From positions 1 to 64,000 of the forward strand of contig JADLAC010000029.1 of assembly GCA_020848435.1 (NCBI GenBank): a stretch of DNA of 64,000 nt. The letters run 5' to 3'. The translations under genes were made by a program, and so were the position numbers. The DNA comes from Burkholderiales bacterium. GTDB lineage: Bacteria; Pseudomonadota; Gammaproteobacteria; Burkholderiales; WYBJ01. The notes below the pieces were generated by a model. The model saw nothing but the letters and a program-made list of their open reading frames with translations, was not told where the DNA came from and searched no databases. Below are positions 44,485-59,213 of this stretch, in pieces (positions within the stretch are counted from its first letter, which is position 1; every line of letters starts with the position of its first letter).

Positions 44485-44579
44485 TGGCGGAAGAGAGTGG
44501 GAGTCGAACCCACAAAGGACCGTCAACGGCCCCCACCGGGTTTGAAGTCCGGCCACCCCACCGGGGACGCTTCTCTTCC
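44485..44579 (-). tRNA. selC: tRNA-Sec (anticodon TCA), selC
   Basis: A 95-base selenocysteine tRNA on the minus strand, with encoded CCA at 44485-44487. The 8-bp acceptor stem GGAAGAGA / TCTCTTCC is perfect and is the longer stem expected of bacterial tRNA-Sec. The anticodon loop reads CTTCAAA, so the anticodon is TCA and reads UGA. A long variable arm and GGTTCGACTCC T arm follow, closely like E. coli selC. One oddity is an A-C mismatch closing the anticodon stem, where E. coli has A-U. It lies 88 bases after the thioredoxin-reductase-like gene in transcription order. Confidence 0.96.
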
Positions 44580-44681: not shown

Positions 44682-45584
44682 TCAGCCGGCCAGCGTTCGG
44701 GCCGCATTCTCGGCTGCCGAGCGCGCCTCGCGCACTGCGTCGACCAGCTTGCCGCTATAGCCGGCGCGCACCGCCCCGGCGGCGAATATCCGCGGTATCG
44801 CGGTTTGAAAGCTTGCGTCGGTCTCGATCGCACCTGCGGCGTCGCGCTTGATATCCGCGGGCGCGATTTCGGAGTTGGGCGTGAGGCCAACGAACACGAA
44901 CACGCCGGCGCAATCGATCCGGCTCTTGGCGCCGTCGGCGGCGCGAATCGTCACGCCTTCGACGGTAGTGCCGCCGAGTATCTCCTCGACCTGAACGCCG
45001 GCTCGGATCGACACGTTCGGCAGGGCACGCACCCGCTCCGCGAGAACACCGCTCGCCCGCGGCACTGCACCGCGCAGCAACACCGTGACGCTGCCGGCGT
45101 AATGCGCCAGCGCCGCGGCTTCCTGGAATGCGGCATCGCCGCCGCCGACTACCACCACGTGCTCTCCCTGGAACATCGGACCGTCGCAATCGGCGCACTG
45201 CGAAACGCCGCGGTGGTCGAACTCCTCTTCGCCCCGGACGCCGAGCTTCTTCATCCTGGCACCCGTTGCGATCACGACCGCGCGTGCCCGGTACTCGCCG
45301 GAATCGGCCACTACCTTGACCTCGGTGGCGCCGGCTTCGATCGCGCTCACCGTGCCGCCGAGGTTTTCGACCCCGGCCGCGGCATTGGACTCCATCAATG
45401 CCGCCGCGATATCGACCCCCGAGGCTTGCTCGTCGTAGCCCTCCAGCTCGGCGATATTGATGACCAGCCCGCCGAACAGGTTTCCTTCCGTGGTCGCGGT
45501 CTTCAGGCCCAGCGATGCCGCATGGCGCGCGCATGCGAGGCCGGTGATGCCTTCGCCCACCACGATCAGATCGTATGTGCTCAC
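44682..45584 (-). CDS. Thioredoxin-reductase-like flavoprotein in the sel locus
   Basis: A 300-residue low-molecular-weight thioredoxin-reductase fold. An FAD motif GEGITG is at residues 11-16 (the usual middle residue varies). The redox pair is in SQCADCDG, and the NADPH motif is VVVVGGGDAAFQEAAAL. One substitution stands out: the FAD-binding aspartate of the usual GD motif is alanine here (FAAGAVRAG). The start is GTG at 45584 with AGGAG upstream. Encoded between selB and selC, it is the natural candidate to reduce the selenoprotein at 50909-51661, though this is inference. Confidence 0.82.
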   Translation of the reverse strand: MSTYDLIVVGEGITGLACARHAASLGLKTATTEGNLFGGLVINIAELEGYDEQASGVDIAAALMESNAAAGVENLGGTVSAIEAGATEVKVVADSGEYRARAVVIATGARMKKLGVRGEEEFDHRGVSQCADCDGPMFQGEHVVVVGGGDAAFQEAAALAHYAGSVTVLLRGAVPRASGVLAERVRALPNVSIRAGVQVEEILGGTTVEGVTIRAADGAKSRIDCAGVFVFVGLTPNSEIAPADIKRDAAGAIETDASFQTAIPRIFAAGAVRAGYSGKLVDAVREARSAAENAARTLAG

Positions 45585-45602: not shown

Positions 45603-45667
45603 AGTGCCCTGAGCTGGGAATCTGCAGCGTTGGCCATGTCAGCGACGAACCTCGGACTCAGGACACT
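45603..45667. repeat. Dispersed repeat family B, copy 2
   Basis: The 18-base core GCGACGAACCTCGGACTC (45642-45659) is identical to the copy at 17900-17917, and AGTG / CACT ends face each other. It fills the gap between selB and the reductase gene, and its right end overlaps the complement of the selB TAG stop codon (45666-45668). Confidence 0.5.
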
Positions 45668-47618
45668 ACGGCTTGGCGCGGCCCGCGCCGGCCGCCGCGG
45701 CAGCCAGCGCCTGGTCGAGCGGGCGGCGTATCCTGCGCGCGTCGCCGAGCCTTTGGGTGTAACCGATGCGGTCGAAGTATTCCAGGACTTCGATCGAAAG
45801 CTTGCGGCTGGCGCCGCAGCGATCGCGGTAATCGGCCGCCGTGAACTGGCCGTTGGGCTTGGCGCCGGCGGTATTCGCGGCAATCTGCGCCAGCCGCTCG
45901 ATGGTGTTGCGAAGCATGAACCGATCGACCATGACCTTGATCGGTTCTCCGCCGCGGCTTTTGCGGTGCAGGAAGTCGCTTACCGCCTTTTCGGACAAAC
46001 GCAACTGCTCGGCGATTTCCTTCACCGTGGGGGGCAGGGGCGTGTCCTTCTGCAAGCACGGCAGGACGCGCTGCCACAACTTTTCGTCCTCTGGATTCGA
46101 GGTCGCATCGTGCCCAGGCCGGCGGATGCGCGTGCCGGCCAATTCCACTTTGCCCGCCTGGGCCAGCTCGCGCACGATCTGGCTCAGCGCCCAATCCGGG
46201 ACGCGCGTTTGGATGTGCTGCGGCAGGCCCGCCAGCTCGAGACCGAGCGACTTGGGATCGTCGCGATGCAAGCGCGTGACCGCCGCCACGATCGAATCCG
46301 CGAGCTGGTTCTTCCGGGCCGCGGCGAGGCCGATGCGCTCGCCCCGTCCGAGCACCGCCAGCTCGCATTTCAGGTACAACGCCGCCGCGCTCGACTGGTC
46401 GAGATTGAACGCGGCCTCGAATTTGCCCAGATCGATACCGTCAGCGCTGGCGGCGCTCAGCGCGCGCAATGCATCTTCCGCGGAATCGGCCGACAACGCC
46501 GCGACCACCTCCAGCCGCGCGCTGGAATTGCGACGCACCGCGGGTGCGAACGGATCGACCACCGTGCCCCCGCCGATGGTGCGCGTCGCCGACTGGTCGC
46601 GCAGGATGAAGCGATCGCCGTGCAGACAGGCGATGGGACGCTCCAGGATGATCTGCGCCACGCGGCTGGCCCCGGGTGCGATCGATTCGCCGCGGCGAAC
46701 AGCGACGCGCGCGGTAACGGCTTCCGTTCCGAGGTGAAAATGCACCGGTGTCCAATGCGCGAGCGGCTCCTTTTCCGCCGCCAGGACCTTCACCTGGGCA
46801 TCGATGCGACGGGTGGGCCGATGGATGGTCTCATCCAGCACCCAATCGCCGCGCCGAACCTGCTCCTTGTCGAGCTTCTCGCCCGTCAGATTGAGCGCGC
46901 AACGGCGGCCGGCGCTGACCTCGCCGGCCGCCTTGCCGTGGACCTGTATGCCGCGGACCCGCACCGGAATGCCCGCCGGCGAGATCATCAACCGGTCGCC
47001 GATCTTGACCTGGCCATTGAAGACGGTACCCGTGACCACCGTACCGCTGCCGGAGATGCTGAATACCCGATCGATGGCGTAACGGAAACGCCGCCCCTGC
47101 GTTTCGCGCGCCTGGATGTTGCGCGCTTCTTCGAACAATCGGGCGCGCAGCTCATCGATGCCGCTGCCGCTCAGTGCCGAAACGGGCAGCACGCTGGCGG
47201 CATGCAGCGTGGTGCCGGCCAGCAGGCGCTGCACCGACTCCGTGACCTCGCGCACCCGTGCCTCGCCCACGCGATCGACCTTGTTGACGACCGCGATGCC
47301 ACGCGAGATGTTCAGCAGGTCGAGAATCTGCAGGTGTTCCACGGTTTGCGGCATGACGCCATCATCGGCGGCGACGACCAGCAGCGCCAGGTCGATGCCG
47401 CACACTCCCGCCAGCATGTTGCGGACGAATCGCTCGTGACCGGGCACATCGACGAAGCCGAGTAGGCCGCCCTCGGGCGTGGGCACATAAGCGAAGCCGA
47501 TGTCGATCGAGATGCCGCGGCTTTTCTCTTCCGGCAGGCGATCGGTGTCGACCCCGGAAAGCGCCTTGACGAGCAGCGTCTTGCCGTGATCGATGTGGCC
47601 GGCGGTCGCGACGATCAT
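45666..47618 (-). CDS. selB: Selenocysteine-specific elongation factor
   Basis: SelB brings Sec-tRNA to UGA codons and reads the SECIS hairpin. The 650-residue protein has GTPase motif G1 AGHIDHGKT at 6-14, G3 DVPGHERF at 57-64 and G4 NKVD at 112-115. The C-terminal third contains the winged-helix domains that bind the SECIS (for example the regions near 440-640, rich in KEIAEQLRLSEKAVSDFLHR-like helices). The length is normal. Its ATG overlaps the selA stop (ATGA), so selA and selB are translationally coupled. Its presence is what makes UGA decoding at 51626-51628 possible. Confidence 0.96.
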   Translation of the reverse strand: MIVATAGHIDHGKTLLVKALSGVDTDRLPEEKSRGISIDIGFAYVPTPEGGLLGFVDVPGHERFVRNMLAGVCGIDLALLVVAADDGVMPQTVEHLQILDLLNISRGIAVVNKVDRVGEARVREVTESVQRLLAGTTLHAASVLPVSALSGSGIDELRARLFEEARNIQARETQGRRFRYAIDRVFSISGSGTVVTGTVFNGQVKIGDRLMISPAGIPVRVRGIQVHGKAAGEVSAGRRCALNLTGEKLDKEQVRRGDWVLDETIHRPTRRIDAQVKVLAAEKEPLAHWTPVHFHLGTEAVTARVAVRRGESIAPGASRVAQIILERPIACLHGDRFILRDQSATRTIGGGTVVDPFAPAVRRNSSARLEVVAALSADSAEDALRALSAASADGIDLGKFEAAFNLDQSSAAALYLKCELAVLGRGERIGLAAARKNQLADSIVAAVTRLHRDDPKSLGLELAGLPQHIQTRVPDWALSQIVRELAQAGKVELAGTRIRRPGHDATSNPEDEKLWQRVLPCLQKDTPLPPTVKEIAEQLRLSEKAVSDFLHRKSRGGEPIKVMVDRFMLRNTIERLAQIAANTAGAKPNGQFTAADYRDRCGASRKLSIEVLEYFDRIGYTQRLGDARRIRRPLDQALAAAAAGAGRAKP

Positions 47619-49081
47619 GACGCAATCGCCGTCGCGCTCGATTGCGCTTGCATGCGCCCGGCGCCTGCGCCAGCGCCAAGATCGAGCGCAGCGAGCTGGC
47701 GCGTGAGCAGGCGCGGGTCGTCCAGCGTGCGCAGGTCGAAGACCAACGTGCCGTCCTGGATTCGCCCGATCACCGGCAGCGGCAGTTTGCGAAAGGCGGC
47801 GGCCAGCCGCTCGACCTGACGGCCGCTCTTGCGCTTTCCCTCGAGCGGACGCAGCGCCACGCCCACGCTAGCGAGCAAGTCGACCGGCAGGGAGCCGCTG
47901 CCGATCTGGCTGCGGCATTCGACCTGGCGCACTTCGGCATGGCCGTCCAGCGCAGCCCGAAGCGCCGGTGTAACGGCATCGGCGACTCGCTCGATTTCGG
48001 CGCGCGAGCGCGTGAGCCAGGCAAGCGTCGGCAGGCGGGCGCACAATCGGTCCGGATCGGCGTAGAGCTTGAGAATCGCTTCCAGTGCGGCCAGCCGCAT
48101 CTTGTCGACGCGCAACGCGCGCTTCAGCGGATTGCGATTGATGCGTGCGACCAGCTCGCGCCGGCCGGCGATCAGCCCGGCCTGGGGACCGCCGAGCAGC
48201 TTGTCGCCGCTGAACGTGACCAGATCGGCGCCGTGGCCCAGGGTCTCGCGCGCGGTCGGCTCGTGCGGCAGGCCCCAGCGTTCCAGATCGACCAAGGTGC
48301 CGCTGCCCAGATCGACCAGGAAGGGCAGATCCCGGGCGTGCGCCAGATCGGCGAGCTTGTCTTCGGCGACGTGCGCGGTGAAGCCCTGGATCGCGTAGTT
48401 GCTGGTGTGCACCTTCATGATCGCCGCCGTGCGCGGGCCGATGGCGTCGGCGTAGTCGCGCGGGTGCGTCCGGTTGGTGGTGCCGACTTCGACCAGCCGG
48501 CACCCGGCGCGGCTCATGATATCGGGAATACGGAAGGCGCCGCCGATTTCGACCAGCTCCCCGCGCGACACGATCACCTCCTTGCGGGGGGCTAGGGTGG
48601 CGAGAACGATCAGCACCGCGGCGGCGTTATTGTTCACGACGGTCGCGGCCTCGGCACCGGTCAGTCGCGTCAACCAGGCTGCGACATGGTCGTCGCGTTC
48701 GCCACGGCTTCCCTTGGCGAGGTCGTACTCGAGATTGGTGGCCGCGGTCATTGCATCGGCCACGGTGGCCGCGGCTTCCGGGGGCAATACCGCGCGTCCC
48801 AGATTGGTGTGCAGGACCGTGCCCGTCAGATTGAGCACCTTGCGCTGGGACGGCGCACACGCGCCGTCAAGCTTCGTTCGCAAGATCGCGGTGAAAGCGG
48901 GCTCGTCGAAATCGTCGCCCGCAACGAGTTGCGGCTGCTCGCCCGCACGAACCTCGGCCAGCAGCCCGCGGATCAGCTCGGTGACCATGCTGCGGCCGAA
49001 GCGCTCGATCTCCGGTGAGCACACGGCGAGCAACCTGTCGACGGACGGGATGGAGCGGGGGACCGATGCGTTGGGCGGCAT
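47615..49081 (-). CDS. selA: L-seryl-tRNA(Sec) selenium transferase
   Basis: Converts serine on tRNA-Sec to selenocysteine using selenophosphate and PLP. The 488-residue product has the PLP lysine in FSGDKLLGGPQAG (K294), NLTGTVLHTNLGRA near 84-97, and GTTNRTHPRDY near 200-210, all characteristic. I chose the ATG at 49081 over the TTG at 49087. It overlaps selB by 4 bases. The enzyme's substrate, selenophosphate, needs selD, which is not in this window. Confidence 0.96.
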   Translation of the reverse strand: MPPNASVPRSIPSVDRLLAVCSPEIERFGRSMVTELIRGLLAEVRAGEQPQLVAGDDFDEPAFTAILRTKLDGACAPSQRKVLNLTGTVLHTNLGRAVLPPEAAATVADAMTAATNLEYDLAKGSRGERDDHVAAWLTRLTGAEAATVVNNNAAAVLIVLATLAPRKEVIVSRGELVEIGGAFRIPDIMSRAGCRLVEVGTTNRTHPRDYADAIGPRTAAIMKVHTSNYAIQGFTAHVAEDKLADLAHARDLPFLVDLGSGTLVDLERWGLPHEPTARETLGHGADLVTFSGDKLLGGPQAGLIAGRRELVARINRNPLKRALRVDKMRLAALEAILKLYADPDRLCARLPTLAWLTRSRAEIERVADAVTPALRAALDGHAEVRQVECRSQIGSGSLPVDLLASVGVALRPLEGKRKSGRQVERLAAAFRKLPLPVIGRIQDGTLVFDLRTLDDPRLLTRQLAALDLGAGAGAGRMQAQSSATAIAS

Positions 49082-49265
49082 GCGCAAGGCGAGGGCGGCT
49101 GGAACGGCGAGCGGAGACTGCGGCGCTCACAAGTTTAGCATCGTCGCACGCTCGCGCCATCGCTGTGCGCCGGCGAGCCCGCCTCGAGCGGAACGTAACG
49201 CCGTATGCACCAGCGTGGTCCGCTGTCGCGCTTGGGGTTGCACACACCCCGGGGCGGACGATCAC

Positions 49266-49343
49266 GCCATACGCGAAAATCGCCCCGTCCCTTCGGGTCG
49301 CGCCCACAACGCAGCGCGCGAAATCAAGTCCGACAGGCTCCTA
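49266..49343. repeat. Right arm of the inverted-repeat element
   Basis: About 78 bases almost identical to the right arm of the element at 1-186 (positions 108-186), ending TCCGACAGGCTCCTA. No left arm is seen. The TAG at its end, complement of 49341-49343, is the stop codon of the protease gene. Confidence 0.75.
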
Positions 49344-50867
49344 GCGCCAGCACTCGATCAGCAGGGTGAAGCGGCGGGCGCGCTCGGGCGCATCGAGAAT
49401 CGCGCCTCGCGGAGGAAGCGCCTCGTCGTCGGGCAGGTCGACGCCATGCGCCTCGATGAAGTTGCGAGCCACCGCGCCGCTGATGGCGAAATTGACGTTC
49501 TGCGGCACATCGCCGGTGACCATGGCCACCTGCAAGGCATTGAGCTTGCTCACGACCACGCCGATGACTTCCCCCTGGGCATCGAGCACCGGACCGCCGC
49601 TGTTGCCGTGCTGTATCGGTGCGGTGATCTGGAACAGGGTATCGTTGTTCTTCGGTCCCGCCAGTGCGCTCACCGTCCCGGTGGTGACATTGAGCGATTG
49701 CGCCAGCAGGTCGCTCAGGGGAAAGCCGGCGACCATGATCTGCTCGCCCAGCCGAGGCGCGGTCTGGAGCCTGAAGCGGGCCGTTTCGGCTACGGCGAGC
49801 TCGCCTTCGAGCAGCGCCAGGTCGTTCTTGGCATCGCGCGCCAGTACTTTGAGCACCGCTTTGCGTGCCGGTGCGCGCACTTCCGTGCATTGCTCGACGA
49901 CGTGGTTGTTAGTAAGGACGTAACCCGGCAGCCCAACGATGAATCCGCTGCCCGTGCCGGTACGGCGCTTGCCGCTGGCGTCGGGCGTGCCGATCGCCTG
50001 GGCAACGCGGACGGGACGCCAACGGCTGGCCGCCTTCTGCGCTTCGGCAACTTGTTCGGGTGTCATCTTCGCCGCCAACTCGTCGCGCAGCTTGTGCGCA
50101 CGCGCCGAGCCGCGGGCCGCGGCCAGGTTTGCCCACATATGGGCCTGCACGAAGTCCTGCGGCACGCCGGTTCCCAGGTGGTAGCTCACGGCCAGCGCCT
50201 CCATCGAGGGCCGGTTGCCCTGGCTCGCCGCCCGGCGCGTCCAGCGCAGAAACTCGTCGAGACTGCGTGCCGCGCCGCCTTCGCCTTTCAGATGCGCCTG
50301 CGCGAGCACGGTTTGGGCCTGAACGTTGCCGCGGTCCGCTGCCTTGCGCGCCCACCGCACCGCCTCGTCGGCATCCTTGGCGACACCATCGCCCGTGAAC
50401 AAGGCTTGCGCCAGTGCGCCCTGGGCTCGCACCGAGCCCGCTTCGGCGGCCGAGCGCCATTGCTGCACGGCTTGGTCGGCATCGCGCGCTACACTCTCGC
50501 CGAGCCGGTGCATGATACCGAGCCAGAACCGCGCATCGGCATGGCCCTGCTCGGCGGCGCGCGTAAACCAGCGAAATGCCTCTTCCGGTGCGCGCTGGGG
50601 ATTGGCGGGCGCGCGCAGGATCTGGCCGAGGGCGACCTGGGCCGCCACGTCGCCTGATTCGGCGAGTGGCCGCAAATGGTCCGCCGCGCCGGCGAAATCG
50701 CCGCCGGCAAGCGCTTTGAGCGCGGAGGGAATGTCCGCGCCCGCGGGCATCGCGGCGAAGGTGCCGAGCCCGAGACAGACGAGCCAAAGCAGACCGATCG
50801 CCGCCCGCGCACATCGGCTGCCCCGTGCAAGCGCCCACGCGCCCGCCCGCGCATATGCACGCTGCAT
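49341..50867 (-). CDS. Sel1-repeat protein fused to a trypsin-like serine protease
   Basis: A 508-residue exported protein. The N-terminus is a basic stretch followed by a signal-like hydrophobic helix (AIGLLWLVCLGLGTFAAM). Several Sel1-like (SLR) repeats of about 36 residues follow, near 60-260; 'Sel1' is a eukaryotic gene name and is unrelated to selenium. The C-terminal part is a trypsin fold with His in LTNNHVVEQC, Asp in KNDLALLEG and Ser in GNSGGPV, so the catalytic triad is intact. I chose the ATG at 50867, which suits the signal peptide. The stop is supplied by the repeat element. It lies between the selenoprotein and selA. Confidence 0.82.
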   Translation of the reverse strand: MQRAYARAGAWALARGSRCARAAIGLLWLVCLGLGTFAAMPAGADIPSALKALAGGDFAGAADHLRPLAESGDVAAQVALGQILRAPANPQRAPEEAFRWFTRAAEQGHADARFWLGIMHRLGESVARDADQAVQQWRSAAEAGSVRAQGALAQALFTGDGVAKDADEAVRWARKAADRGNVQAQTVLAQAHLKGEGGAARSLDEFLRWTRRAASQGNRPSMEALAVSYHLGTGVPQDFVQAHMWANLAAARGSARAHKLRDELAAKMTPEQVAEAQKAASRWRPVRVAQAIGTPDASGKRRTGTGSGFIVGLPGYVLTNNHVVEQCTEVRAPARKAVLKVLARDAKNDLALLEGELAVAETARFRLQTAPRLGEQIMVAGFPLSDLLAQSLNVTTGTVSALAGPKNNDTLFQITAPIQHGNSGGPVLDAQGEVIGVVVSKLNALQVAMVTGDVPQNVNFAISGAVARNFIEAHGVDLPDDEALPPRGAILDAPERARRFTLLIECWR

Positions 50868-50908
50868 GCCGCGCGGCTTCGAGCGCTCCGATGGGGTGCG
50901 TTGCGTAG

Positions 50909-51661
50909 CTACTCCCAAAGCCCTTCGGGCATCGGCAAACCCTGCGCCTGCTCGGGTCGCAGGGGTTGGGCAGGCTTGATATCGAAGCGCTCGAGCACGA
51001 CCGCGAGCTGGCGGCAATGCTGGGCCGAGTGCCACGTGCTGCGCTCGAACACGTCATGGGCGCTCTGGATGCCGTAGTACGTGTCGAGCTTCTTCTCCAG
51101 GGCAGGGTCAGGATTGGCCGCCCACCAGGTGCTCATGCGGTCGCGCACCTGCTGGCCGTATTCCGCCACCTGGGCAGGCGTGCGCATGGTTTCGGGCGGC
51201 TCGGTATTGGCGAGGGTATTGGAATAGACTTGGCCCTCGTAAGCGAGCAGGAACGCCTCGCCGATGCGGAAAATGTGATAGACGAACGGACGAATGAGCC
51301 GCGGCCGATTCGGAATCACCTGCTCGCCCATGCGATCGAGCGGCAACTGGCGTACCAGCCCCTGCGCCGTGGCGAGTATGGAATCGTAGCGCGGCACCAG
51401 CAGCACGGGTGCGAGCTGGCTTCGATCGAGCGCGACGCCGATGAACTTGGCGACGTCTTTGAGGTTCTGCGCGAAGGTGTAGCGATCGCCGATCGCCACC
51501 ACCGGCACGTTACGCAGGCCCAGCGCTTTCAACTGATCCATGCCGCCCGGCGTGTTGATCACGTCGACGACATCGAAGTCCTTCACCGTCTGCGAAAGAA
51601 ACTCTTTCGTCTTGAGGCAACTGCTTCATCCCGGCTGGGTGAATAGACGCACGCGTTCCAT
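50909..51661 (-). CDS. Selenoprotein: Sec-containing glutaredoxin-like domain fused to DinB-like domain (UGA at codon 12)
   Basis: A 250-residue protein if the in-frame TGA at 51626-51628 is read as selenocysteine. Residues 1-20 read MERVRLFTQP then G-U-S-S-C, so U12 and C15 form a UxxC at the thioredoxin-fold active site. The cis-proline segment NVPVVAIGD lies at 51-59, as in glutaredoxins. Residues 85-250 look like a DinB/YfiT helical bundle with H129 and an H211-x3-H215 pair as metal ligands. The ATG at 51661 has AGGAGAG 6 bases upstream. Without Sec decoding, the frame would seem to begin at the GTG at 51586 and lose the active site. It lies 36 bases after mnmA and 41 before the protease. 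The genes selA, selB and selC are downstream on this strand. Specific chemistry is unknown; DinB-like proteins often use low-molecular-weight thiols. Confidence 0.88.
51593..51609 (-). promoter_or_regulatory. Candidate bacterial SECIS hairpin
   Basis: On the mRNA (minus strand), a perfect 6-bp stem CGAAAG / CUUUCG encloses the 5-base loop AGUUU. The loop begins 22 bases after the UGA, within the usual bacterial range. It has a G in its second position and a U after it, as in the E. coli fdhF loop. The bulged U of fdhF is not evident. The hairpin lies inside the coding region, as bacterial SECIS elements do. Confidence 0.72.
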
Positions 51662-51697
51662 CGTGCTCTCCTGTAGGCGCCGAATCTGCAAACAAGG

Positions 51698-52822
51698 CTA
51701 CTCTGCGCAGGCGAAAGCCGTCAAGGACGCCGCCGCGGCTTGGGCGGTTTCGATGATGCCGCCGCCGAGACAGGTTTCACCTTGATAAAGCACGACCGAC
51801 TGTCCCGGCGTGACCGCCCATTGCGGCGTGTCGAAGTCGATCACGCACAGGTTCGCGTCGAGGGCGGCGATGCGGCATGCGGCATCGGTTTGTCGATAGC
51901 GCGTCTTGGCGCTATAGCGCAAGGCCGGATCGGGCGGCGAACCGGCAATCCAATTGAGCCGCGTGGCGTGTAGCCTGCGCGCGAGCAGCAGAGGATGGTC
52001 GTGGCCTTGGACTACGATCAGGCGATTGTGTGCCATGTCCTTGCGAGCGACGTACCAGGGCAGGGCGGGGCTTGCCTTGCGCCCGCCGATCCCGAGGCCT
52101 TGGCGCTGGCCGATGGTGTAGTACATGAGGCCGGCGTGGCGCCCGACGAGGCGACCGTCCGGCGTACGAATGTCGCCCGGCTCCGGCGGCAGGTAGCGAT
52201 TGAGGAAGCTGCGAAAGGGCCGCTCGCCGATGAAGCAGATCCCGGTGCTGTCGCGCTTGGCGTGGACCCCGAGCCCATGGGCTCGAGCGATCGCGCGCAC
52301 GGCGGACTTGCGCAGGCCGCCGAGCGGAAACAATGCGCGCACCAGTTGATCCTGCCGCAGGCGATACAGAAAGTAGCTTTGATCCTTGGTTTCGTCCAGG
52401 GCGCGCAGCAGGTGCACGAGCGCGCCGTCTCGCCGCGTGCTCGCGTAATGCCCCGTGGCGATATGTTCGGCGCCCATGCCGATTGCATGATCGAGAAAGC
52501 AGCGGAACTTGATCTCGGCGTTGCACAAGACATCGGGGTTGGGCGTGCGTCCGGCGCGGTACTCGGCGAGAAATTCGCTGAACACGCGTTCCTTGTACTG
52601 CGCCGAGAAGTTGACGACCTCGATCTCGATGCCCAGGGCATCGGCCACGGCGACGGCATCAATCAGATCCGAGCGCGACGAGCAATACGCGTCGGTGTCG
52701 TCATCCTCCCAGTTCTTCATGAACAGGCCGACCACCTCGTGGCCCTGCTGCTTGAGCAGCAGCGCCGCCACCGAAGAGTCGACACCGCCCGACATGCCGA
52801 CCACGATGCGCTTGGAGGTCAT
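51698..52822 (-). CDS. mnmA: tRNA-specific 2-thiouridylase
   Basis: Puts sulfur on U34 of tRNAs for Lys, Glu and Gln. The 374-residue protein begins with the PP-loop [14 protein letters not shown] near 8-21. The catalytic cysteines are in [12 protein letters not shown] (near residue 102) and [15 protein letters not shown] and [10 protein letters not shown] are also conserved. The ATG at 52822 is used. It is the first gene in the run that leads into the selenoprotein, which begins 36 bases after its stop. Cotranscription is likely, a functional link is not. Confidence 0.95.
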
Positions 52823-55074: not shown

Positions 55075-57356
<2,282 letters not shown>

Positions 57357-57374
57357 GCGGCCCAGCTCATCGAG

Positions 57375-57410
57375 ATGCGTACAGCCGGCATCGCCGGCTG
57401 TACGCATTTG
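57375..57410 (+). terminator. Terminator of clpS-clpA
   Basis: A perfect 15-bp stem ATGCGTACAGCCGGC / GCCGGCTGTACGCAT (57375-57389, 57393-57407) with loop ATC, then TTTGGG. The short T-run is weak but the stem is strong. Confidence 0.75.
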
Positions 57411-57581
57411 GGCGTTCGTCGACACATGTCGATGCCGTCTCGGCACCGGGCGGCACAGGTTATCGTGCGAATGAGACGCCGCTTCCCATGGCCCCGGATG
57501 AGCACGCCGTCAAGTTTGATTGAACGAAAAATACAGCCGGAGTAGCATGCGGTACCGGCGGCTATCGACAGGAGGGGGGGC

Positions 57582-57932: not shown

Positions 57933-59213
57933 ATGCGAGTTACTCGGCGTGAATTCGTGAAGCTTGCCGGCGCCGGCGTTGCCGTGGGCGCGGGCGCGTT
58001 GACGGGATGCGCGGGGACCGGGACCTCGGGCCGGGCCAAGGTCGTCGTGATCGGCGGGGGTTTCGGCGGCGCTACGGCCGCCAAGTATGTCCGGCTGTGG
58101 GCACCGCAGTTCGACGTAAGCTTGGTCGAGCCCAATGCCAACTTCATCTCCTGTCCGTTCAGCAATCGAGTGCTGGGCGGCAACCTCAAGCTCGAGGCCC
58201 TGACCGCAAGCTACGACAAGCTCCAGAGCGCTCGCGGCGTCACCCTGGTGCGCGACCGCGCGGTCGCGGTCGACCCACAAGCCCGCACGGTGAGGCTCGC
58301 CGGCGGCCAGACCTTGGCCTACGATCGCCTGGTCGTCGCCCCGGGCATCGACTTCATCTACGACGAGTTGCCGTCGCTGAAGGACGCGGCCGCGCAGGAG
58401 CGCATCCTGCACTCGTGGAAGGCCGGCCCGCAAACACTCGCCCTGCGCCGCCAGTTGGAATCGATGCGCGATGGCGGCGTCTACGCGCTTTGCGTGCCCA
58501 AGTCGCCGTATCGTTGTCCGCCGGGGCCCTACGAGCGCGCCTGCCAGGTCGCCTTCTACTTCAAGAATCACAAGCCGCGTTCGAAAGTGCTGATTCTGGA
58601 TGCGAACGAGGACGTCCAATCGAAGAAGGGCCTGTTCATGGCGGCCTGGAACGGGCCCTCCAAGGGCCTGGTGGAGTATCGGCCGCAGAGCGAGCTGGTG
58701 GATGTCGATGTGCGCAACATGACCGCCAAGCTCCAGTTCGAGGACGTCAAGGCCGACGTGCTCAACGTCGTGCCGCCGCACCGCGCCGGCGACATCGCGC
58801 GCCAGGCTGGGCTCATTACCACGAACGCGCGCTGGTGCAACGTCAATTGGCAGACCATGGAGTCGACCGCGGTGCCGAACGTGCACGTCCTGGGCGACGC
58901 TACCCTATCGGCGCCGGCGATGCCGAAATCAGGACACATGGCCAATCAGCATGGCAAGCTCGCCGCCGATGCGATCGTCGCCGCGTTGACGGGGCGTGCG
59001 ATCAACGACGAGCCCATCATTTCCAATACCTGCTATAGCTGGATCAGCGACAAGGAGGTCGTCCACGTCGCCTCGATCCATGCCTACGATCAGGCGCAGA
59101 AGACGCTGGTGCCCGTGAAAGGCTCGGGCGGGTTGTCTCCCGGCATCACCACGCGCGAGGCGGAATACGCGATGGGTTGGGTTGCGAGCATCTTCGCCGA
59201 TGCGCTGACCTAG
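57933..59213 (+). CDS. fccB: Flavocytochrome c sulfide dehydrogenase flavoprotein subunit
   Basis: Oxidises sulfide to sulfur and gives electrons to the cytochrome subunit. The 426-residue protein has a Tat signal (TRREFVKLAGAG, 4-15) followed by a hydrophobic helix. The FAD motif VVVIGGGFGGATAAKYV lies near 37-53, and PYRCPPGPYERACQV and SNTCYSW supply the redox cysteines. RAGDIARQAGL is typical of the FCSD family. The TAG stop is the first three bases of the repeat element at 59211-59254. Confidence 0.9.
   Translation: MRVTRREFVKLAGAGVAVGAGALTGCAGTGTSGRAKVVVIGGGFGGATAAKYVRLWAPQFDVSLVEPNANFISCPFSNRVLGGNLKLEALTASYDKLQSARGVTLVRDRAVAVDPQARTVRLAGGQTLAYDRLVVAPGIDFIYDELPSLKDAAAQERILHSWKAGPQTLALRRQLESMRDGGVYALCVPKSPYRCPPGPYERACQVAFYFKNHKPRSKVLILDANEDVQSKKGLFMAAWNGPSKGLVEYRPQSELVDVDVRNMTAKLQFEDVKADVLNVVPPHRAGDIARQAGLITTNARWCNVNWQTMESTAVPNVHVLGDATLSAPAMPKSGHMANQHGKLAADAIVAALTGRAINDEPIISNTCYSWISDKEVVHVASIHAYDQAQKTLVPVKGSGGLSPGITTREAEYAMGWVASIFADALT

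What the first reader, a model, noticed from the sequence alone, without database searches (positions are those of the whole stretch)
50909..51661. Hidden selenoprotein: UxxC glutaredoxin-like domain fused to a DinB-like domain
Reading back from the apparent GTG start at 51586 shows 25 more codons in frame to an ATG with a good ribosome-binding site, interrupted only by TGA at codon 12. The TGA sits exactly where the first cysteine of the glutaredoxin CxxC belongs (residues G-U-S-S-C), with the second cysteine and the cis-proline segment NVPVV intact. The genes selA, selB and selC lie downstream on the same strand. Sec-containing glutaredoxin-like proteins are known from selenoproteome surveys; whether this Grx-DinB fusion has been described I cannot check.
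Basis: partly seen in the sequence, partly recalled or inferred. Interest (0 to 1): 0.95.

Follow-up and report, generated by a model that had tools for sequence, protein, structure and literature searches.

The report
Hidden selenoprotein: redoxin fused to DinB
This gene, which gene finding cuts short at an internal stop codon, is predicted to make a selenium-containing redox protein joined to a likely metal-binding DinB-type domain; relatives in dozens of bacterial genomes keep the same stop codon, and in most of those genomes a copy sits beside the selenocysteine-insertion genes, a spot that in comparison genomes usually holds formate dehydrogenase.

Summary
At 50909-51661 (-) a 250-codon frame with one TGA (codon 12) joins a glutaredoxin-like to a DinB-like domain; selA, selB and selC lie downstream on the same strand. 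The selenoprotein reading is strongly supported. Of 60 distinct copies read as DNA, 51 have TGA here and 9 have Cys. All 51 TGA copies, and none of 16 Cys copies, carry the hairpin CGAA(A/G)GA-GUU-UCUUUCG, 23 nt from UGA to loop; codons 20-23 are identical in all 51, the only zero-entropy codons of 76 scored. Among 399 genomes of the order, selB is in 25 of 27 with TGA copies, 3 of 8 with Cys copies, 76 of 364 without the gene. In 22 of 25 a copy lies 1.4-6.6 kb from selB. Sec formate dehydrogenase was seen in 16 of 20 comparison sel loci, but in 6 of 27 TGA genomes, not this one. A thioredoxin-reductase-like gene follows selB in 12 of 15 loci read. A 2026 catalogue of 119 selenoprotein families lists no such fusion. 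Proposed, untested: the TrxR-like protein reduces the Sec redoxin, which serves the DinB metal site.

The parts
50909..51661 (-). CDS of the Sec-redoxin/DinB fusion, 250 aa, ATG start, TAG stop, TGA at codon 12
51668..51672 (-). AGGAG, likely ribosome-binding site, 6 nt before the ATG
   Evidence: sequence
51626..51628 (-). in-frame TGA, predicted selenocysteine codon (residue 12 of PGUSSC)
51593..51609 (-). predicted SECIS hairpin CGAAAGA-GUU-UCUUUCG; it starts 16 nt after the UGA and its loop G comes after 23 nt
51479..51652 (-). glutaredoxin-like domain, residues 4-61, with Sec12, Cys15 and Pro53
51005..51283 (-). DinB-like domain, residues 127-219
51275..51277 (-). codon of His129, first of three invariant histidines
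   Evidence: 43 of 43 rows
51017..51031 (-). His211 and His215 (HSAQH), invariant histidines
   Evidence: 43 of 43 rows
47615..49087 (-). selA
45666..47618 (-). selB
44682..45584 (-). thioredoxin-reductase-like flavoprotein (CADC motif) between selB and selC; proposed reductase of the redoxin
44489..44579 (-). selC, tRNA-Sec
51698..52822 (-). mnmA, immediately upstream; the same neighbour in 14 copies of families f1 and f227

Best explanation
The gene at 50909-51661 encodes a glutaredoxin-like domain fused to a DinB-like domain whose first active-site cysteine is replaced by an in-frame UGA that is predicted to be read as selenocysteine, likely with the help of a hairpin that starts 16 nt after it. 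Shown by sequence: UGA or Cys at this site in all 60 copies read, the hairpin in all UGA copies only, linkage to selAB, and a genome with selA, selB, selC and a selD that itself has UGA. Inferred: SelB and tRNA-Sec insert Sec12; Sec12-Cys15 forms the redox pair of a NrdH-like redoxin; the TrxR-like flavoprotein encoded between selB and selC is its electron donor; and the redoxin delivers electrons, or removes a thiol adduct, at a metal held by His129, His211 and His215 of the DinB domain, acting on a small organic or thiol-conjugated substrate. The confidence given is for the selenoprotein part; for the TrxR-redoxin-metal-site relay it is about 0.4.
For: TGA/Cys swap: 51 TGA, 9 Cys of 60 copies, plus Cys in L050 and in the 6 plasmid copies read. 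Coding on both sides of the TGA: P10 and G11 kept in 50 of 50 rows with 4 codons each. Hairpin in 51 of 51 TGA copies, always at the same distance; at the same register the 16 Cys copies pair over 0-4 bp only. Codons GAG-TTT-CTT-TCG fixed in 51 of 51, AAA in 48 (the other 3 AAG, keeping a G-U pair); Cys copies vary there. selB in 25/27, 3/8 and 76/364 (Fisher p 4e-14 for first against last; genomes are related, so not independent). tRNA-Sec of 72 bits or more in the same 25. Linked to selB in 22 of 25, same strand in all 22. SelD with internal TGA in 25 of 27 genomes; in this genome it reads GGG-U-GCK. Tree: 50 of 51 Sec rows form one group, SH-aLRT 95. TrxR-like gene after selB in 12 of 15 loci read against 0 of 19 readable comparison loci. 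In the PDB profile search NrdH entries follow two entries named glutaredoxin and two named thioredoxin. Three His invariant in 43 of 43, as in bacillithiol transferases, whose activity needs metal (PMC5815605, passages).
Against: No protein evidence. G420 has a TGA copy but no selB, no strong tRNA-Sec and a SelD without TGA; G721 has no selB or strong tRNA-Sec (84% and 83% complete). G373 has no SelD hit at E<=1e-40. Folding energy alone is unremarkable. One plasmid Cys copy (L134) has AAA GAG TTT CTT like the Sec copies and a 4-bp stem. The TrxR-like gene is absent from the 3 loci of family f194 read past selB. Substrate and metal are unknown.
Confidence: 0.93

Rival explanations
1. Selenoprotein as above, but the chemistry is glutathione-based catabolism: the DinB domain joins a thiol to an electrophilic organic acid and the Sec redoxin strips it off again, giving net reduction or isomerisation.
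For: Among 20 neighbour proteins that I picked by hand from TGA and Cys copies away from sel genes are CoA-transferase family III (3), TctC, DctM, MmgE/PrpD, mandelate racemase type, aconitase, isocitrate/isopropylmalate dehydrogenase, a succinyl-CoA-ligase-type protein and an AMP-binding enzyme; Cys copies lie among catabolic genes on Variovorax and Roseomonas plasmids. One of 43 rows matches mycothiol-S-transferase PF04978 weakly. The DinB superfamily includes glutathione transferases (reference title seen in PMC5815605).
Against: The Gly-Gly of canonical glutathione-binding glutaredoxins (recalled) is Gly/Ala-Gln here, Gln65 in 43 of 43. The rest of the 20 neighbours are unrelated to this idea (CobW, DUF1989, a molybdopterin enzyme, two-family MFS, a desaturase, GFO/IDH) or without family (3), and no background rate was measured.
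Confidence: 0.3
2. Selenoprotein whose role is selenium handling: the Sec redoxin and metal site reduce or carry selenium for SelD or SelA.
For: Linked to selAB in 22 of 25 genomes and next to mnmA, a gene of the tRNA-thiolation path that selenouridine synthesis follows (the pathway is recalled).
Against: 20 of the 42 TGA copies in the order sample are not on a selB contig, nor is any of the 8 Cys copies, and 5 of the 8 Cys genomes have no selB hit; a Sec protein needed to make Sec would be self-dependent.
Confidence: 0.12
3. TGA is a true stop and the gene is a DinB-only protein of 225 aa from GTG 51586, or a pseudogene.
For: Gene finders call it so: of the best 120 homologues listed (3,462 passed), 118 cover 93% of the query or less and only 2 cover all of it.
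Against: Glutaredoxin residues before the TGA are conserved with synonymous variation, 51 copies keep the TGA and hairpin, Cys copies read straight through.
Confidence: 0.02
4. TGA is read as another amino acid, by suppression or a variant code.
For: None found.
Against: TGA ends 7 of 14 window frames examined; full Sec machinery is present; the alternative residue in the relatives read is always Cys.
Confidence: 0.01

Closest known systems
Sec-containing glutaredoxin (PF00462, UxxC; PMC13188914 table 1; Geobacter, Alkaliphilus and Moorella in PMC1794560, passages)
   Same: UxxC at the same place in a glutaredoxin-like domain
   Different: Here fused to a DinB domain, in betaproteobacterial genomes and mostly with a copy next to selAB; glutathione-site Gly-Gly (recalled) replaced by Gly/Ala-Gln
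UXX-star selenoprotein families (NF041212, NF041211, NF041114)
   Same: Short glutaredoxin-like domain with N-terminal Sec
   Different: Window protein scores 28.3 against a cut-off of 66 for NF041212 and 20.5 against 100 for NF041211; UxxC with conserved second Cys; DinB fusion
NrdH redoxins (TIGR02194)
   Same: Best NCBIfam match, 37.2 bits; reduced by thioredoxin reductase (recalled)
   Different: Below cut-off 85.75; Sec and DinB fusion
DinB / S-transferase-like superfamily (PF12867; bacillithiol transferases BstA-H, PMC5815605, passages)
   Same: Three conserved histidines, two of them as HxxxH near the C-terminus
   Different: N-terminal Sec redoxin; no thiol transferase activity shown; weak profile scores
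Sec formate dehydrogenase FdhA with selABC in Proteobacteria (PMC1794560, passages)
   Same: The selenoprotein gene beside selAB
   Different: Unrelated protein; it holds that place in 16 of 20 comparison loci, whereas 21 of 27 TGA-fusion genomes show no TGA form of it at E<=1e-20

Membership tests
bacterial selenoprotein | in-frame UGA conserved in relatives and exchanged only for Cys | tested here: met
   51 TGA, 9 Cys of 60
bacterial selenoprotein | hairpin after UGA: 3-9 nt loop, 4-16 bp stem, G in first two loop positions, 16-37 nt spacing (rule of PMC13188914 section 5) | tested here: met
   GUU loop, 7-8 bp stem, 23 nt, 51 of 51; the rule's energy limit of -7.5 was not computed for the hairpin alone (72-nt segments gave -11.6 to -25.3)
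bacterial selenoprotein | selA, selB, selC, selD in the genome | tested here: met
bacterial selenoprotein | selenium in the protein | not testable with these tools
   needs 75Se or mass spectrometry
glutaredoxin PF00462 | score over Pfam cut-off | tested here: met
   38.1 against 22.9 bits; 43 of 43 rows at E<=0.01
glutaredoxin PF00462 | Gly-Gly glutathione-binding motif (recalled) | tested here: not met
   position 64 Gly 26, Ala 16, Cys 1; position 65 Gln in 43 of 43
NrdH TIGR02194 | score over cut-off | tested here: not met
   37.2 against 85.75
UXX-star NF041212 | score over cut-off | tested here: not met
   28.3 against 66
DinB_2 PF12867 / S-transferase-like | profile match | tested here: inconclusive
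   21.1 against 24.8 bits for the window protein; 38 of 43 rows at E<=0.01, best 1e-8
DinB_2 PF12867 / S-transferase-like | three conserved histidines for metal | tested here: met
   H129, H211, H215 in 43 of 43; metal itself not tested
DinB_2 PF12867 / S-transferase-like | thiol transferase activity | not testable with these tools
   needs assay

The most novel reading that the evidence does not exclude
An uncatalogued selenoprotein family has taken the place of formate dehydrogenase as the resident selenoprotein of the sel operon in several betaproteobacterial lineages, arising from one Cys-to-Sec change, and works as a new kind of enzyme: a TrxR-like flavoprotein feeds a selenocysteine redoxin that is fused to, and drives, a three-histidine metal centre of the DinB fold.
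Probability: 0.35. Interest if true: 0.86.

Novelty: new variant of a known kind. Interest (0 to 1): 0.76.

Why it matters
Gene finding clips these proteins just after the UGA, so a family is stored largely as DinB-like fragments. For these lineages it departs from the published picture that formate dehydrogenase is the only selenoprotein of sel-bearing Betaproteobacteria (PMC1794560, passages), offers a reason why the Sec machinery is kept there, supplies an unusually uniform SECIS hairpin for mechanism work, and joins selenocysteine to a fold known for metal-dependent thiol transfer, which can now be tested directly.

Tried and rejected
Pseudogene, sequencing error and true stop: rejected by 51 copies and the frozen hairpin. 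Formate dehydrogenase as the Sec user of this genome: TIGR01591 gave 13 matches and TIGR01553 4 matches here, none with TGA. Structure prediction was not possible; phmmer of the DinB part against PDB sequences found nothing at E<=1, and the profile search matched glutaredoxin, NrdH, thioredoxin, Spx or ArsC-like chains over the N-terminus, and one chain (7upp) over residues 99-149 at E 0.0014. A simple SECIS rule found no hairpin of 5 bp or more in this genome's selD, so that rule misses some SECIS. Covariation could not be used: the hairpin is almost invariant. The Rfam tRNA-Sec cut-off alone does not discriminate (over it in 204 of 399 genomes); I used the gap between 66 and 52 bits. Literature searches: selenoprotein+glutaredoxin+DinB 1 unrelated paper, UXX-star+selenoprotein 1, selenoprotein+DinB 2 unrelated, selenoprotein+selenocysteine+betaproteobacteria+glutaredoxin 2, SECIS/metagenome 18, of which I opened four, glutaredoxin domain+DinB family+fusion 0, selenoprotein+Burkholderiales+selenocysteine 2 that look unrelated, a five-term search 0. 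Subscription papers and preprints are not in that library.

Full report
OBSERVATION. The minus-strand frame 51661-50909 runs from ATG to TAG with one internal stop, TGA at codon 12, in PG-U-SSC. AGGAG lies 6 nt before the ATG. Pfam finds Glutaredoxin at residues 4-61 (38.1 bits, cut-off 22.9) and DinB_2 at 127-219 (21.1 bits, cut-off 24.8). Reading downstream on the same strand: a Sel1/trypsin-like frame, selA, selB, a thioredoxin-reductase-like gene and selC; mnmA lies just upstream.

IS THE TGA A RECODED CODON? I read the DNA of the copies that I could fetch: the genome-contig scan gave 20 loci, 15 of them covering the motif, 14 TGA and 1 Cys; genome searches gave the rest. After removing duplicates by sequence there were 61 matches to PGxxxC; one (AGG) lay elsewhere in L080 and was dropped. 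Of the other 60, 51 have TGA, 8 TGC and 1 TGT. A further Cys copy, L050, was missed by the pattern because its motif is QGCSSC; five loci are cut off before the site. Six plasmid copies read (of 13 records found) are also Cys. On both sides of the TGA the protein sequence is kept while synonymous codons vary, so both sides are coding.

THE HAIRPIN. All 51 TGA copies carry the hairpin, 48 as CGAAAGA-GTT-TCTTTCG and 3 as CGAAGGA-GTT-TCTTTCG, always at the same distance, 23 nt between TGA and loop. At the same register the 16 Cys copies checked pair over 0-4 bp. Codons 20-23 (GAG TTT CTT TCG) are identical in 51 of 51 and codon 19 is AAA in 48 and AAG in 3; of 76 scored codons these four alone have zero entropy. 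Among the 9 Cys copies the same sites vary: Lys is AAG in 8, Phe TTC in 4, Leu is never CTT; but GAG is kept in 7, and one plasmid Cys copy, L134, has AAA GAG TTT CTT. In eight window genes CTT is 20 of 325 Leu codons and AAA 12 of 106 Lys codons. Even L064, only 28% identical to the window protein, has the hairpin. It fits the published bacterial SECIS rule (PMC13188914, section 5 read): 3-nt loop beginning with G-U, 7-bp stem, 23-nt spacing. Against this, the folding energy of the segment is ordinary and 2.3% of random synonymous recodings satisfy the rule with 7 or more Watson-Crick pairs, so the case rests on conservation.

MACHINERY. Order sample, 399 genomes: 35 have the gene at E<=1e-20; 27 of these have TGA copies (42 copies in all) and 8 have Cys copies. 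selB: 25 of 27, 3 of 8, and 76 of the 364 without the gene. Strong tRNA-Sec hits (66 bits or more; the next score is 52) include the same 25 TGA genomes. The two misses, G420 and G721, are 84% and 83% complete; G420 also has a SelD without TGA and stays an exception. In 22 of the 25 a fusion gene lies on a selB contig at 1.4-6.6 kb, same strand in all 22; G373, G627 and G694 are unlinked. SelD was found in 26 of 27 (not in G373), with an internal TGA in 25; here it reads GGG-U-GCK.

WHO USES SELENOCYSTEINE HERE? I took 20 sel loci from the 76 selB genomes without the fusion (picked from the list, not at random): 16 hold a formate dehydrogenase with TGA at DNQARV/DTQARI-U-H, 4 do not. Whole-genome searches with TIGR01553 (E<=1e-20) found a TGA form in 10 of 10 comparison genomes but in only 6 of 27 fusion genomes (G371, G457, G533, G545, G627, G713); this genome has none. 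G545 and G370 each have two selB genes; in G545 one lies with formate dehydrogenase and one with the fusion. So in 21 of 27 genomes the fusion and, in most, SelD are the only selenoproteins seen by these searches; other selenoprotein families were not searched for, and several of these genomes are incomplete. This departs from the earlier finding of formate dehydrogenase as the only selenoprotein in sel-bearing Betaproteobacteria (PMC1794560, passages).

EVOLUTION. In a tree of 65 rows (51 Sec, 14 Cys), 50 Sec rows form one group (SH-aLRT 95) beside the Cys rows; the last, L064, sits on a very long branch. One Cys-to-Sec change followed by duplication is the simplest reading; root and long branches are uncertain. 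G369 has four TGA copies, and this genome two.

HOW IT MAY WORK. Sec12 and Cys15 would form the redox pair. The redoxin part lacks the Gly-Gly of glutathione-binding glutaredoxins (recalled motif): Gln65 is invariant in 43 of 43, and NrdH is the best NCBIfam match, though below cut-off. NrdH proteins are reduced by thioredoxin reductase (recalled). A TrxR-like gene (CADC motif in the window copy) follows selB in 12 of the 15 sel loci of fusion genomes that I read past selB (of 27 selB genes in 25 genomes); the 3 without it belong to family f194. It follows selB in 0 of 19 comparison loci; a twentieth ends too early to tell. The loci are related, so the Fisher value of 8e-7 is only a guide. I therefore propose the relay NADPH - TrxR-like - Sec redoxin - DinB metal site; every step of it is inferred. 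[quoted passage not shown] That paper also suggests that a second domain in such enzymes sets the non-thiol substrate. Some copies away from sel genes neighbour organic-acid catabolism genes, hinting at electrophilic acids as substrates, but the neighbours were picked by hand and no background rate was measured.

NOVELTY. A 2026 catalogue of 119 prokaryotic selenoprotein families (PMC13188914, section 7 parts 1-2 of 3 read; the word DinB does not occur in the text) has Grx, UXX-star and other redoxins but no such fusion; deep-Sep (PMC12013277, word search) and the 2022 review (PMC9312934, word search) do not contain DinB. NCBIfam of June 2026 has no model whose cut-off the protein passes. Cys relatives are annotated as DinB family or glutaredoxin domain-containing proteins. 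I rate it a new variant of a known kind: a new selenoprotein family with a new architecture, using known recoding.

Noticed in passing
44682-45584 (-): A TrxR-like flavoprotein with a CADC motif sits between selB and selC and goes with the fusion-bearing sel operon (12 of 15 loci read), not with the comparison sel loci (0 of 19 readable).
   Followed up: partly
51698-52822 (-): mnmA lies directly upstream, and likewise beside 14 copies of families f1 and f227; MnmA makes the thiolated tRNA base that selenouridine synthesis uses (recalled).
   Followed up: no
49341-51035 (-): A Sel1-repeat/trypsin-like frame lies between the fusion and selA here and in L044 (G371), but not in L042 and L043 of the same genus.
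   Followed up: no
L002 / L102 (G000:C2:288071-288817 +): A second TGA copy in this genome, 41% identical, with the same hairpin, with a CoA-transferase gene upstream and a mandelate-racemase-type gene downstream.
   Followed up: partly
L111 (G369:C122:4537-5274): A very divergent TGA copy (28% identity, motif PG-U-FSC) that still has the hairpin, with an extra A-U pair.
   Followed up: partly
L134 (Caballeronia plasmid pNK82): A Cys copy that shares the codons AAA GAG TTT CTT with the Sec copies but has only a 4-bp stem; it may show what the hairpin grew from or decayed to.
   Followed up: no
L126 (G000:C22:27091-28020 -): selD is itself a predicted selenoprotein (GGGUGCK), but a simple SECIS rule finds no hairpin of 5 bp or more after its UGA.
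   Followed up: partly
G370 and G545: Two selB genes in one genome; in G545 one lies near a formate dehydrogenase gene with TGA and the other near the fusion, as if two Sec operons coexist.
   Followed up: no
L028, L035: Metagenome bins labelled Bordetella parapertussis carry the gene; they group with other betaproteobacterial bins in the tree, so the labels look doubtful.
   Followed up: no
57933-59213 (+): Flavocytochrome-c sulfide dehydrogenase flavoprotein, also present in the nearest named relative L020 (79% identity).
   Followed up: no
55995-57446 (-): A 483-aa frame without any Pfam or NCBIfam match at E<=0.001; it may not be a gene.
   Followed up: no
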